A stretch of 64,000 nt of DNA, taken from Paenisporosarcina sp. FSL H8-0542. Its GTDB lineage: Bacteria; Bacillota; Bacilli; Bacillales_A; Planococcaceae. Position numbers and translations under genes: made by a program. The DNA lies in the NCBI RefSeq assembly GCF_038632915.1, contig NZ_CP152050.1, positions 2,263,001-2,327,000 of the forward strand, given 5' to 3'. Below the pieces are notes generated by a model, which saw only the letters and a program-made list of their open reading frames with translations, had not been told where the DNA came from and ran no database searches. Positions 5,955-62,670 of the stretch are shown here, one piece after another. Numbering within the stretch: the first letter of the stretch is position 1; every line of letters begins with the position of its first letter.

Positions 5955-6400
5955 GTTGAGATTCCGCAAAATAGCTACGCTTTCTTAGGGCGAGCGTCAA
6001 GACTCCTCAGGCCAACAGGATGTTGGTCACGAAGGCGTTGCCACACGAAGTGCGTACTTAGTCTTCGTTCTTATGTTCGCTTCTGCGGGGTCTCGACTGT
6101 TTCGCTATCCCTCAGGAGTCTTCGCTGTTTTGGATCCTGTAGTTACTCGTCGGAAAGATATTGGCCATTCGTCCAATATCTTTCCTGCGGGTTAAGCATG
6201 TCCAAGTGAGAATCCACAGAGAACGAATTGTGCAAAATTGCTTTTGTACAATTCGTTTGCGACGAAGATAGCGTACCTATGCAACGCACTTTCATGTTTC
6301 GAAGCTAGTAGAGCGATGTAGAAACAGGAGCACAGATTTTTTCGCGTGAGGAGGCTCACGAACTGCACGCAGAATGCGTCCGCTCGTAACGGAAATCAAT
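5955..6400. repeat. diverged full-length relative of the family-1 repeat, copy D
   Basis: The roughly 530-base gap between sdaAB and fakA is mostly this element. Its ends are an imperfect inverted pair (GTTGAGATTCCG at left, CGGAAATCAAT at right). Inside are the CTCAGGAGTCTTCG-type arms and a GTTACTCGTCG block at 6142-6152, identical to 37743-37753 in copy B. A perfect 12-bp hairpin (6153-6164 / 6173-6184) and a 15-bp hairpin with one G-U (6223-6237 / 6242-6256) follow. GCGTCCGC at 6376-6383 is shared with copy B. It also holds a 29-base block (6010-6038) matching the family-2 copy at 47112-47140 at 27 positions. It lacks the AT-rich promoter segment of copies A-C. Confidence 0.75.
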
Positions 6401-36866: not shown

Positions 36867-37352
36867 CTATTCACCTTTTCTCTTTGCAGCTTTTTCTGCT
36901 TTTTCTTCAAAATACATTACGATGATGAGCATAATCACGCCGATGGTTAATGCTGCATCAGCAACGTTAAAAATCGGGAATTCATAATTTATGACCGGGA
37001 TAAGAACGTCTGCAAAATCCACTACTTCACCACGGAACACACGATCAATAAAATTCCCAAGAGTACCACCAAGTAAAACCATCAAACTTAATTGAAAGTA
37101 TGGCTTTCCTTTTGCTTCTTTATGAAAGTAATACAAAATACCAATGACCACGACGATGGTGACGATTGTAAATAGCCACATCTGCCCTTCCAACATTCCC
37201 CACGCCGCTCCACGATTGCGATGGGAAAGTAAAGCAAATGTAGGGTCCACTAAGACAATTCGTTCACCTAGCTCCATATTTTTTACAACTAACCATTTTG
37301 TCCATTGATCAATCGCCACAACGGCAATTGCTACTAAATAAAAAATGTACAC
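36867..37352 (-). CDS. lspA: lipoprotein signal peptidase (SPase II)
   Basis: LspA cleaves prolipoprotein signal peptides in the membrane. Four helices and the aspartyl dyad are visible: G-N-F-I-D-R-V-F-R-G-E-V-V-D-F and F-N-V-A-D-A-A-L-T. The start is GTG 37352, since CGGAGGAAC lies just before it and overlaps the alternative upstream ATG. About 161 residues. It is separated from ileS by repeat copy B and its flanking terminators; ylyA is absent. Confidence 0.94.
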   Translation of the reverse strand: MYIFYLVAIAVVAIDQWTKWLVVKNMELGERIVLVDPTFALLSHRNRGAAWGMLEGQMWLFTIVTIVVVIGILYYFHKEAKGKPYFQLSLMVLLGGTLGNFIDRVFRGEVVDFADVLIPVINYEFPIFNVADAALTIGVIMLIIVMYFEEKAEKAAKRKGE

Positions 37353-37413
37353 GTATGTTCCTCCGTTACGCAAGTATCTTAGCTAGTTTAACACATAACA
37401 TGAACAGACAGAA

Positions 37414-37439
37414 AGAGCTGCCCGAAAAGGGCAGCTCTT
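37414..37439 (-). terminator. terminator stem-loop, left copy of a 26-bp duplication
   Basis: An 11-bp GC-rich stem (AGAGCTGCCC with GGGCAGCTCT) around a CGAAAA-type loop. On the minus strand it is followed by TTTCTGTCTG. It is identical in all 26 bases to 37935-37960, the two copies bracketing repeat copy B. It should end the ileS transcript. Confidence 0.8.
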
Positions 37440-37934
37440 AGCTTGTTGACAAAAGAATAATAATTAATATAAAAGTATAAAAATTGAGTTCTTATTTTTT
37501 GCACTCTATCGAAATAGATTGTGGTCGGCTATTTCTTTCGCTTTCCGCGGACGAAACGCTAGCCTCCTCGGCTCAGCTGTCTATGACAGCTGAGCCTGTG
37601 GGGTCTAACTTGTTTCGTTTTTCCGCAGGAGTCTTCAGAAATAGCCAACCACTTTCCAAACTTATATATTTTGCAGAGACACGCTTACAGAAGCAATTTC
37701 TTTTGATTGGAGTGGAGGCGGCGGAAAACAACTGCTCCTGCGGTTACTCGTCGCAAAGATTAGGACCAAATCCCAATCTTTTCAGCGGGAACAGCACGAG
37801 CTGAAGACCCCGCAGGAACGTAGTGACGAGGAGACTGAAGCCGTGCCCGCGAAACGCGTCCGCCGCAATGGAAATCAACATTTTCTTGCATAGGCTCTAT
37901 TTCAATAGTATACAGTTTTATTCACTACAGTCTG
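37440..37934. repeat. family-1 structured intergenic repeat, copy B (full length, two modules)
   Basis: This 495-base element is the most complete copy. It has the AT-rich promoter-bearing start, then module 1: a nested palindrome with outer arms 37521-37536 / 37637-37652 and a perfect 12-bp apical hairpin with a TAT loop (37570-37596). Module 2 (about 37700-37880) runs from TTGATTGGAGTGGAGGCGGCGG to a matching TCCGCCGCAATGGAAATCAA. It encloses GTTACTCGTCG (37743-37753), a hairpin (37755-37765 / 37771-37781) and CCCCGCAGGAACG...GACGAGGAG arms. From memory, similar GC-rich palindromes are common between genes in Bacillaceae and Planococcaceae; I could not search. It fills most of the 640-base gap between ileS and lspA. 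The frame at 37484-37804 is a by-product. Confidence 0.9.
37446..37473 (+). promoter_or_regulatory. putative sigma-A promoter at the start of repeat copy B
   Basis: TTGACA, a 16-base spacer and TATAAA lie 48 bases before the palindrome and point into it. The same pair at the same spacing is in copy C. If active it would give a structured RNA antisense to the ileS 3' untranslated region. Confidence 0.5.
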
Positions 37935-37960
37935 AGAGCTGCCCGAAAAGGGCAGCTCTT
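37935..37960 (-). terminator. terminator stem-loop, right copy of the 26-bp duplication
   Basis: This is identical to 37414-37439 over 26 bases and lies 55 bases after the ileS stop. On the minus strand it lacks a T tract, because the repeat begins at once (CAGACTG). On the plus strand it is followed by TTTCAAATGG. Joined with the left copy it rebuilds a perfect 13-bp terminator stem. Confidence 0.75.
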
Positions 37961-38015
37961 TCAAATGGAGGATTACTTTGTCCGGCTATGTTCGAAAGCC
38001 AGCTCCTCCTATATT

Positions 38016-40778
38016 TTATACGTAATATTTTTCTACTACACCTGCACATCGTGGACATAATGTTGGATGTTTTTCGTTTTCTCCCACATTGGAAGAAATC
38101 GTCCAGCATCGTTCACATTTTTCACCTTGTGCTTTAGTAACGACAACAGAAGAAACTTCAAGGTTTAAAGCATCCGCTGGTGCATCTTCTTTTGAACCTG
38201 CAAGTGTAAAGTCCGACACGATAAAGAATTGTGCAAAGTCCACTTTGCTTGCATCAAATGCTTCCACTAATTCTTTTTTCACATAAAGCGTAACTTTTGC
38301 TTCAAGTGACTTACCGATAACTTTAGCATTACGCGCTTCTTCCAAAGCTTTCAATACATCGTCACGAACCAGCATCAATTGTTGATACTTCGTACGTAAA
38401 CCTGCAAATGAATCATGAGTTGTCGCTTCAGGGAAGTCAGTCAGTTGTACACTTTCTTCTGTTTCTTGTGTCATGAAGACCCATAGCTCATCCGTCGTAT
38501 GCGGTAAAATTGGTGTTGTCACTTTCAACAATGCGATCAAAGTATCGTACATGACAGTTTGCATCGCACGTCGATGTGAATTGTCTTCACCTTCGATATA
38601 AACAACATCTTTTGCAATATCCAAGTAGAATGAGCTCAAATCAGACGATACAAAATTGTTTACAGCATGGTAAACGCTTGGGAAGTCATACTTGTCATAA
38701 GCTTTGCGAACTGTTTCGATCAAATCTTGCAGTTTCATGAACATGTATTGATCTACTTCACGTAAATCTTCATAAGCAACGCGATCGGTCTGTGGATTGA
38801 AGTCCGATACATTCCCATGAAGGAAACGGAAGGTATTACGGATTTTACGGTAAACTTCAGCAACTTGCTTGAAATTCGAGTCCGTTACGCGAACGTCTGC
38901 AGTGTAATCGACAGATGCTACCCATAGACGAAGAATGTCAGCACCAAGTTGATTCATGACTTTAGCAGGGTCGATTACGTTTCCGATCGACTTACTCATC
39001 TTGCGTCCTTCTCCATCAAGTGTGAAACCATGACTCAATAATCCTTTGTACGGGGCGTGGCCGTTGATGGCAACACTTGTCGTTAACGAGGAATTAAACC
39101 ATCCACGATATTGATCCGATCCCTCCAAATATAAGTCAGCTGGATATGAAAGATCTTCACGCTCATCAAGTACAGCTTGGTGAGAAGATCCTGAATCAAA
39201 CCAAACATCCATAATATCCGTTTCTTTTGTGAAGCGACCGTTTGGACTATTTGGGTGTGTGAATCCTTCTGGTAGCAAGTCTTTCGCTTCACGTTCGAAC
39301 CACACCGTTGAACCGTGTTCACGGAACAATTTTGAAACATGGGCAATCGTTTCTTCCGTTAAAATTGGTTCTCCATCTTCCGCATAAAAGACAGGGATTG
39401 GAACACCCCATACACGTTGTCGTGAGATACACCAGTCTCCACGGTCACGGACCATGTTGAAGAGACGAGTCTCACCCCATGCTGGTGTGAATGATGTATC
39501 CTTAATTGCTTTTAATAATTGGTCGCGGAATGCTTCAACTGAAGCAAACCATTGAGCTGTTGCCCGGAAAATAACCGGCTTTTTAGTGCGCCAGTCATGA
39601 GGTGCAGAGTGTGTAAAGAATGTTAGTTTTTCTAATGCACCAACAGCATCTAAAGCTTCTGTGATAACTTTATTGGCTTTATCATAGAATAACCCTTCGA
39701 AGCCAGGTGCTTCAGCAGTCAATACGCCACGGTCATCGATCGGTGAAAGTACTTCAAGTCCATACGCTTTACCAACTTGGAAGTCTTCTTCTCCGTGTCC
39801 AGGAGCTGTATGAACACATCCAGTACCGCCCTCGTCCGTTACATGGTCCCCGAGCATTACAAGCGAATCACGATCATATAAAGGGTGTTTGGCTACCATG
39901 CGATCCATTTGTTCACCTTTTAATGTCTGAACAATCTCATAAGAATCCCATTCAAGAGCAGTTACCACCGTCTCCAGTAATGCTTTTGCTACAAGGTAGC
40001 GCGTTGATTCAACTTCCACAATTACATAGTCGAATTCCGGATTGACTGAAATTCCAAGATTAGCTGGAATTGTCCAAGGTGTAGTCGTCCAAATAATAAT
40101 TTTAGTACCTTCAGCAACTACGCCTTTACCATCTGTCACTTCAAAACTTACGTAGATAGAAGGAGATTTTTTGTCCTGGTATTCGATTTCAGCTTCTGCT
40201 AAAGCAGATTCACTTGATGGAGACCAATAAACTGGTTTTAAACCTTTATAGATATAGCCTTTACGTGCCATTTCACCGAACACTTCAATTTGACGGGATT
40301 CATACGCTGGTTTCAATGTCACATATGGATTTTCCCAATCACCTTGCACACCAAGACGTTTAAATTGTTCACGTTGACGGTCAATTTGTTCATAAGCATA
40401 TGTTTCACACAAGTTCCGGAATTCTGCTACAGTCATTTCTTTGCGATTGACACCTTTATTCGTTAAAGCTTGCTCAATCGGAAGACCGTGCGTATCCCAA
40501 CCAGGAACATACGGTGCATAATAACCAGTCATAGATTTGTGTCGTACAATCATGTCTTTAAGCACTTTGTTCATAGCATGACCCATGTGAATATCGCCGT
40601 TCGCATATGGAGGACCGTCATGTAAAATGAAACTCGGGCGGTCTTTGGTACGCTCCAGTACTTTTTCATAAAGTTTCATTTCATTCCATTTTTCTTGCAT
40701 CGCCGGTTCACGTGTAGGTAAACCACCGCGCATTGGGAACTCAGTTTTTGGCATCAATAACGTATTTTTATATTCCAA
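38016..40778 (-). CDS. ileS: isoleucyl-tRNA synthetase
   Basis: IleS (920 aa) charges tRNA-Ile. The class I signatures are [12 protein letters not shown] near residue 57 and K-M-S-K-S-I-G-N near 595. The editing domain lies between (W-T-T-T-P-W-T-I-P). A C-terminal zinc motif C-E-R-C-W...C-P-R-C is complete. Length and zinc tail match the bacterial form found in B. subtilis. The transcript starts with an Ile T-box leader. Confidence 0.98.
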
Positions 40779-47076: not shown

Positions 47077-47245
47077 GTCTAGTTACAAGCGCCAGCTCGC
47101 ACTTCCGCTTGGGCCAACAGGATGTGGGTCAGGAAGGCGTCCCGACACGATGTCGGGCCATTAGCCTTCCTACCTAAAATCATGCGAAAACAGGTTTTCG
47201 ATTCGGACTTTCCACCGTCAGCGTCGAGCTAGATTAGCGCTTTTC
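47077..47245. repeat. family-2 structured repeat, long copy after ftsZ
   Basis: Ends are GTCTAGTTACAAGCGCC and AGATTAGCGCTTTTC. The middle holds a compound hairpin (AGGAAGGC / GCCTTCCT enclosing a perfect CCCGACA-CGA-TGTCGGG). It also holds the family hairpin CGAAAACAGGTTTTCG near 47186 and the 29-base block at 47112-47140 shared with copy D. It lies between the ftsZ stop and its terminator, filling most of the 280-base gap to spoIIGA. Confidence 0.8.
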
Positions 47246-62364: not shown

Positions 62365-62395
62365 AAAAAAGCCGTCTCTTTAACCGAGACGGCTT
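62365..62395 (-). terminator. intrinsic terminator of bshC, beyond repeat copy C
   Basis: A perfect 10-bp stem (AAGCCGTCTC / GAGACGGCTT) is followed by a T run on the minus strand. It lies about 325 bases after the bshC stop, with repeat copy C in between. Confidence 0.85.
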
Positions 62396-62396
62396 C

Positions 62397-62670
62397 AGCT
62401 TGTTGACAAAAGAATATTAATCAATATAAAAGTATAAAAATCCGCATTCTTATCTTTTACACTCTATCAAAAAATATTATGGTCGGCTATTTCTTTCGCT
62501 TTCCGCGGACGAAACGCTAGCCTCCTCGGCTCAGCTGTCTATGACAGCTGAACCTGCGGGGTCTAGCTTATTTCGTTTTTCCGCAGGAGTCTTCAGAAAT
62601 AGCCGACCATCTTAGTAATGAAATAATATGAAGAGATACGCAAACAGAAGCGAAATCCGTTGATTGGAGT
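62397..62670. repeat. family-1 structured intergenic repeat, copy C
   Basis: It has the same AGCTTGTTGACAAAAG start and module 1 palindrome as copies A and B. Outer arms 62479-62494 / 62595-62610 are perfectly complementary over 16 bp. It ends at the TTGATTGGAGT segment (62660-62670) without module 2. With the bshC terminator and the mraZ operator it accounts for the 450-base gap. The remainder, 62671-62719, is AT-rich with no visible feature. Confidence 0.88.
62403..62430 (+). promoter_or_regulatory. putative sigma-A promoter at the start of repeat copy C
   Basis: TTGACA, a 16-base spacer and TATAAA are identical in hexamers and spacing to copy B, although the spacer itself differs at several bases. 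It points into the palindrome and towards the bshC 3' end. Confidence 0.5.

What the first reader, a model, noticed from the sequence alone, without database searches (positions are those of the whole stretch)
37440..37934. Full-length repeat sits inside a perfectly duplicated terminator stem-loop (26-bp direct repeats)
The 26 bases at 37414-37439 recur exactly at 37935-37960, and together they bracket repeat copy B. Each copy is one half-extended version of the same hairpin. The left copy has the extra GA-A bases on its left arm, and the right copy has the extra T-TC on its right arm. Removing the element and one copy restores a perfect 13-bp stem with T tracts. This is what insertion into the ileS terminator with a 26-bp target duplication would leave. 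A duplication that long, at a terminator, by an element with no transposase or clear terminal inverted repeats, is unusual.
Basis: seen in the sequence. Interest (0 to 1): 0.72.

Follow-up and report, generated by a model that had tools for sequence, protein, structure and literature searches.

The report
Transposon relic that duplicates terminator hairpins
A short mobile DNA element jumped into the stop signal between two bacterial genes and copied the whole hairpin on both sides; its relatives appear to find and cut their target by its hairpin shape, so the length of the copied piece follows the target instead of being fixed.

Summary
The 26 bp at 37414-37439 recur at 37935-37960 around a 495-bp repeat. 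A same-species genome has the empty site: the flanks overlap by exactly 26 bp and the hairpin has an intact 13-bp stem. Four of six congeners also have one hairpin and no element; a fifth has its own insertion, in opposite orientation, between two hairpin copies.

The element is a transposase-less derivative of an IS1182-family insertion sequence. Its terminal inverted repeats are imperfect, and this copy lost 17 bp near the right end.

The long duplication is the rule for this lineage: in 64 duplications of 20-35 nt, nearly all terminator-like hairpins, the cut points lie symmetrically about the dyad in 57.

Two other IS1182 clades in the same bacterial family leave fixed 8-9 bp duplications, or at most 4 bp with often complementary flanks, as published for IS1272; behaviour follows transposase clade.

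Best mechanism: both transposon ends attack the 5' feet of the hairpin arms, drawn as hypothetical "pathway b" by Wan et al. 2017. Duplication of whole hairpins is shown; attack at the feet is inferred.

The parts
37440..37934 (+).
   Evidence: Absent from G072 of the same species at 99% flank identity; about 16 copies in the genome by hand grouping
37414..37439 (.). Left copy of the duplicated terminator hairpin (target-site duplication, 25-26 bp)
   Evidence: single-strand DNA fold with an 11-bp stem; both terminator-like matches of the scan lie here, on the - strand
37935..37960 (.). Right copy of the duplicated terminator hairpin
37440..37453 (+). Left terminal inverted repeat AGCTTGTTGACAAA (first C missing or mutated in this copy)
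   Evidence: Shared with other copies and with ends of clade A insertion sequences
37925..37934 (+). Right terminal inverted repeat remnant CTACAGTCTG; 17 bp just inside it are missing compared with L002 and other copies
   Evidence: Comparison by eye
37521..37652 (.). Long imperfect inverted repeat inside the element (self match at 71%)
   Evidence: query 82-213 on the minus strand; folded strand z-score -10.2 for 37375-38015, from 20 shuffles
37785..37901 (.). Stretch similar to the 5' non-coding region of clade A autonomous insertion sequences (78% to L245, E 7e-21)
37724..37780 (.). Extra piece (element positions 285-341), absent from several copies (L005, L009-L012); part of it matches another short repeat family dispersed in the genome
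1875..2154 (+). Copy A of the same element, right end lost; hairpin-like repeat at 1853-1871 just before its left end
62397..62670 (+). Copy C of the same element, right end lost; terminator hairpin at 62369-62395 just before its left end

Best explanation
The repeat is a miniature, transposase-less derivative of an IS1182-family insertion sequence (here called clade A; ends CAGACTGTAGACAAA). It was mobilised in trans into the terminator between ileS and lspA. SHOWN: the pre-insertion site held one hairpin; the insertion left one hairpin copy on each side; autonomous clade A elements do the same at many sites, with duplications of 20-35 nt that are whole hairpins placed symmetrically about the dyad. 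INFERRED: the transposase recognises an extruded hairpin or cruciform by shape. [quoted passage not shown] The duplication length is therefore set by the target's stem and not by a fixed ruler in the enzyme. Afterwards the upstream hairpin copy lacks its T-rich tail, so the element should become part of the 3' untranslated region of the ileS transcript and termination should move to the far copy (inferred).
For: Empty site with exact 26-bp overlap in G072, same species, and five more clean filled/empty pairs, overlaps 21-33 bp, out of 8 comparisons. One hairpin and no element at the ortholog in 4 of 6 congeners; an independent, opposite insertion between two hairpin copies in G005. Autonomous clade A loci: 36 of 40 with a duplication, 35 of the 36 without mismatch; 2 of the other 4 have a complete but different hairpin on each side. 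Dyad at the exact centre in 52 of 58; equal left and right offsets in 57 of 64. First base A in 59 of 64, last base T in 53 of 64; G-C pairs rise from 0.02 at the terminal pair to 0.36-0.61 at the next four pairs. T or A tract next to the hairpin in 58 of 64 against 16% background. Transposase NF033551 at 468 bits, cut-off 270. Part of the element matches the IS 5' non-coding region. Other clades: 8-9 bp in 17 of 17 with ends found, or at most 4 bp in 30 of 30 with ends found; behaviour matches tree clades. Wan et al. 2017 (PMC5678879) drew this outcome as pathway b.
Against: No biochemistry: the cut at the hairpin feet and the cruciform are inferred from products. A G-C-rich core with flanking A and T tracts is also a sequence pattern, so shape and sequence recognition are not fully separated. 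The regression of duplication length on an independently measured G-C stem span is only moderate (Pearson 0.42, Spearman 0.56), probably in part because the stem finder runs past a mismatch at some sites. No intact IS1182 transposase was found in this genome or in G072, although strains differ in insertions, so the mobilising enzyme is not identified. Strict end-and-duplication criteria were met by only 17 of 40 relative loci and 5 of 15 own-genome loci.
Confidence: 0.82

Rival explanations
1. The transposase reads sequence, not shape: it recognises an A-tract, G-C core, T-tract pattern typical of terminators and makes a long, loosely set stagger.
For: Duplications begin with A in 59 of 64 and end with T in 53 of 64, and 58 of 64 lie next to a T or A tract.
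Against: The 58 duplications are all different in sequence; length varies from 20 to 35 nt while the cut points stay symmetric about the dyad (57 of 64). A sequence reader with a loose stagger should not track the dyad.
Confidence: 0.15
2. The hairpin is recognised in single-stranded DNA at the replication fork or in a transcription bubble, not as a double-strand cruciform.
For: Targets look like terminators, where polymerase pauses (established knowledge); hairpin targeting on single strands is known for other elements (recalled).
Against: Duplication of the hairpin needs joining on both strands; a one-strand insertion would not directly give it. Nothing here tests replication or transcription dependence.
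Confidence: 0.2
3. Two tandem terminators existed first and the repeat lies between them by other means.
For: Two identical hairpins are what is seen in the window, and G005 also has two hairpins, but with an element between them.
Against: The same-species empty site and four congeners carry one hairpin.
Confidence: 0.01
4. The element replaces hairpins as published for IS1272, and the duplication is secondary.
For: Clade A transposases match the same IS1182 family model, the family to which PMC4923244 assigns IS1272, and both target hairpins.
Against: Clade B, which behaves like IS1272, shows no duplication over 4 bp in 30 of 30 loci with ends found; clade A shows duplications at 36 of 40 autonomous loci.
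Confidence: 0.01

Closest known systems
IS1272 (IS1182 family), inverted-repeat-replacing transposition (PMC5678879, PMC4923244)
   Same: Targets stem-loops, often terminators, with little primary sequence specificity; assigned to the same IS family (as written in PMC4923244)
   Different: IS1272 removes all or part of the hairpin and leaves no duplication; clade A keeps the hairpin and duplicates it whole
IS1182-family insertion sequences of clade A, e.g. in Sutcliffiella horikoshii pBH-BAT-167, Peribacillus sp. R9-11 pB and Cytobacillus firmus CK19 plasmids
   Same: Same kind of ends, same target type, whole-hairpin duplications of 30, 24 and 35 nt
   Different: They carry a transposase gene or a match to one; the window element is a deletion derivative without one
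[quoted passage not shown]
   Same: Short, no gene, terminal inverted repeats, target duplication, multicopy, mobilised in trans (inferred)
   Different: Duplication length is variable and equal to a hairpin
Group IIC introns (recalled)
   Same: Insert at terminator hairpins
   Different: They insert after the hairpin without duplicating it; no Rfam match at the element

Membership tests
IS1182 family (autonomous partner) | Transposase matching the family model above cut-off | tested here: met
   L152 protein P0001: NF033551, 468 bits against cut-off 270
IS1182 family (window element) | Encodes its own transposase | tested here: not met
   The only listed ORF within 37440-37934 is a 106-aa frame at 37484-37804, against about 450 aa for the transposases; that frame was not itself searched against families. 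Filed only as a non-autonomous derivative
IS1182 family (window element) | Ends shared with the autonomous element | tested here: met
   CAGCTTGTTGACAAA and TTTGTCTACAGTCTG in copies, and ends of the same pattern in clade A elements
MITE | Terminal inverted repeats | tested here: met
   Imperfect, 12 of 15 by eye in intact copies; truncated on the right in the window copy
MITE | Target-site duplication with an empty site in relatives | tested here: met
   26-bp overlap with the empty site in G072
MITE | Mobilised by a transposase in trans | not testable with these tools
   No intact partner found in this genome or in G072; polymorphic insertions only imply it
IS1272-type hairpin replacement | Target hairpin removed, no duplication | tested here: not met
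Group IIC intron | Intron RNA structure | tested here: not met
   No Rfam match at the element at gathering threshold; no dedicated intron search was run

The most novel reading that the evidence does not exclude
One IS1182 clade realises a DDE transposition mode in which the target is read by shape and the target duplication has no fixed length: both cuts fall at the feet of whatever hairpin is present, so the duplicated piece is the hairpin itself. Related clades in the same family use related enzymes for hairpin replacement or for fixed 8-9 bp duplications, making the family a natural series for how stagger length is set.
Probability: 0.7. Interest if true: 0.8.

Novelty: new variant of a known kind. 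Interest (0 to 1): 0.7.

Why it matters
DDE transposases normally leave a target duplication of fixed length, set by enzyme geometry (established knowledge). Here the length varies from 20 to 35 nt with the target while the cuts stay symmetric about its dyad. This supplies natural examples of an outcome that Wan et al. drew only as a possible pathway, and places it next to two related clades with other outcomes, so that the cause of stagger length can be tested by swapping enzymes and targets. It also suggests a gentle way to live in a genome: by landing in terminators and keeping a hairpin on both sides, the element should spare genes. The strain differences make it a natural insertion series, and one terminator (ileS) has been hit twice independently, in opposite orientations.

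Tried and rejected
Rejected readings. Pre-existing tandem terminators: refuted by the empty sites. Hairpin replacement as for IS1272: not the case here. Group IIC intron or a known RNA family: no Rfam match at the element. A resident autonomous partner: PF13751 gave 0 matches in the own genome and NF033551 gave four partial matches there, all below the cut-off, three of them with stops inside, and none in G072.

Mended on re-checking. I first took five congeners as empty at the ileS site. Searches show that G005 is filled by a related element, so the count is four of six.

Things that led nowhere or weakly. A two-sided end pattern found a duplication in only 17 of 40 relative loci and 5 of 15 own-genome loci, probably because old copies have diverged ends; free alignment gave 25 of 41 right ends with a score of 17.5 or more. 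The regression of duplication length on stem span was only moderate. In one search the script picked, among possible end pairs, the one with the largest sum of duplication and flank complementarity, which leans towards finding both; no shuffled control was run there. In the genome-contig scan most of the 26 loci are short N-terminal pieces that end within a few bases of the end of their stretch. For L003 and L369 no host flank matched in the stretches fetched, L370 gave no clean pair, and L002 is filled in both strains. The 20-kb stretch that splits one own copy was only listed for open frames.

Literature. Nine searches, seven with results and several with capped lists (for example 40 of 91, 20 of 3,127), listed no paper whose title or shown abstract start describes whole-hairpin duplication by an IS1182 member. 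Three papers were opened, none in full. The library lacks most subscription papers and ISfinder; a review tried by DOI is not held. From memory, ISfinder-type tables give IS1182 duplications of 0-60 bp and palindromic targets, so variable length as such may be on record.

Full report
WHAT IS THERE. The 26-bp sequence at 37414-37439 recurs exactly at 37935-37960 and brackets a 495-bp repeat. The window holds two more copies, at 1875 and 62397, both truncated on the right. The genome (3.63 Mb, one contig) gave 83 BLAST matches to the element; many are short matches to another repeat or of the internal inverted repeat. By hand I group those that belong to this family into about 16 elements. Ten of the 16 have a recognisable hairpin copy on both sides. 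One of these ten is split by about 20 kb. Three have a partial copy on one side, and three keep only one end, each with a hairpin or hairpin-like repeat at that end. This grouping is manual; the strict script found 5 of 15 loci.

ENDS. Intact copies run from CAGCTTGTTGACAAA to TTTGTCTACAGTCTG, imperfect terminal inverted repeats (12 of 15 by eye).

EMPTY SITES. In G072, listed as the same species, the two window flanks align at about 99% and their blocks overlap by exactly 26 bp; the site holds one hairpin with a 13-bp stem. Of eight filled-versus-empty comparisons, six are clean, with block overlaps of 26, 33, 24, 33, 26 and 21 bp. Three are filled in this genome and three in G072; one element is filled in both genomes and one comparison was not clean. 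At the ileS-lspA site, four of the six other same-genus genomes with the locus (G003, G004, G006, G007) have one terminator hairpin and no element match. In G001 no such hairpin was found and lspA directly follows ileS. In G002 the locus was not found. Insertion, not loss, is therefore the direction at this site. G005 is different: a related element of its own lies there in the opposite orientation relative to ileS, between two identical copies of the 23-nt hairpin core, with further sequence between its ends and the hairpins. The same terminator has thus been hit twice.

THE PARTNER. The exact 15-base right end occurs 89 times in 18 of 61 genomes, while the reversed control pattern occurs twice. 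I fetched 40 regions holding 41 of the 79 ends outside this genome; the other 38 were left out, many of them close to contig ends. Some ends belong to complete insertion sequences. The transposase of one, L152, matches the IS1182 model NF033551 at 468 bits (cut-off 270) and Pfam DDE_Tnp_1_6. Element positions 346-462 match the 5' non-coding region of a complete element, L245, at 78% (E 7e-21), so the window element looks like a deletion derivative. This genome has only partial transposase matches below the cut-off, three of four with stops, and G072 none.

THE RULE. From 150 genomes of the order, 109 had an IS1182 match, 56 of them over the cut-off. I fetched 100 of the listed loci, chosen for several copies per genome: 40 of clade A, 40 of clade B and 20 of clade C. 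Clade A: 36 of 40 have a duplication flush with the ends, 35 of them without mismatch. Of the other four, two carry a complete but different hairpin on each side, as recombination between copies would leave, and for two no matching right end was found. The duplication finder did not look for palindromes. With 17 relative loci and 5 own copies this gives 58 duplications, all different, of 20-35 nt. The dyad is at the exact centre in 52 of 58. Six more loci (five of eight named ones, plus L152) bring the total to 64; of the three named ones without a duplication, two have a different complete hairpin on each side and one had no left end found. Of the 64, 59 begin with A, 53 end with T, and 58 lie next to a T or A tract against 16% at random places. 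G-C pairs rise from 0.02 at the terminal pair to 0.36-0.61 over the next four pairs. Left and right distances from the cut to the outermost G-C pair are equal in 57 of 64. The plain correlation of duplication length with G-C stem span is moderate (Pearson 0.42, Spearman 0.56), and in 49 of 64 the duplication is the span plus 2, 4 or 6 nt.

THE CONTRAST. Clade C (ends GAGG..CACTGAAAAA) leaves 8-bp duplications in 14 and 9-bp in 3 of the 17 loci with ends found, of 20. Clade B (ends like GAGGCTGGGACA) leaves none in 26 and 2-4 bp in 4 of the 30 loci with ends found, of 40. Its flanks are complementary over 3 bp or more in 22 of 30, like leftover stem, against 2 of 17 in clade C (end pairs were picked to favour either sign, and no shuffled control was run). 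In a tree of 26 transposases B and C are each one side of a branch with support 100/100. The clade A rows form a group with two unlabelled members (94/96), and these also show whole-hairpin duplications. The tree has no outside root, so it does not say which two clades are closest, and the program warns of long branches meeting that involve five clade B rows.

MECHANISM. Wan et al. 2017 (PMC5678879; read: abstract, section 22, part 1 of the discussion, passages) saw IS1272 replace hairpins. They drew as a possibility that ends joined at the 5' feet of a stem-loop would duplicate it whole. PMC4923244 (passages only) reports hairpin and terminator targeting by IS1272 with partial deletion of the hairpin and no duplication. 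Clade A does what that possible route predicts. That the enzyme reads shape and joins at the feet is inference.

CONSEQUENCE. After insertion only the distal copy keeps the downstream tail. The scan of 37300-38100 finds two terminator-like matches, both at the left copy on the minus strand, the strand of ileS and lspA; shuffles give 0.9 on average, so the scan alone is weak. The element should therefore lie in the 3' untranslated part of the ileS transcript (inferred).

OTHER ANATOMY. Of the eight complete clade A elements printed, seven begin with an end that is itself one arm of a near-perfect hairpin followed by a T tract (the eighth, L223, less perfectly), which could block transcription from outside; six of the eight have a long leader with a hairpin-like repeat before the gene (by eye).

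LIMITS. Everything is comparative sequence. Whether databases already list such duplications could not be checked.

Noticed in passing
window 6012-6077 and 47114-47180; L094 2185-2250: Rfam Bacillaceae-1 RNA (RF01690) matches; at 6012 and in L094 the motif sits inside a long hairpin-like repeat of the same style as the one inside the element, as if it were nested in a mobile repeat.
   Followed up: partly
L094 1857-2707 (G005): Independent insertion of a related element into the orthologous ileS terminator, opposite orientation relative to ileS, between two identical hairpin cores and with further sequence nested beside it.
   Followed up: partly
G000:C1:1595886-1616793 (L361, L362): One copy of the element is split by about 20 kb in this genome, and the matching pieces lie about 7.3 kb apart in the same-species genome G072, so this element seems to host variable DNA.
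   Followed up: partly
L222, L257, L351, L352: Clade A elements with a complete but different hairpin on each side, as expected after recombination between copies.
   Followed up: partly
L224, L228, L233 and other complete clade A elements: The terminal inverted repeat is one arm of a terminator-like hairpin at the upstream end, and six of eight have a long hairpin-like repeat in the leader before the transposase gene.
   Followed up: no
window 47139, 51061, 61681: Another direct-repeat family of 117 nt, 62-71% alike, not examined beyond reading the first copy.
   Followed up: no
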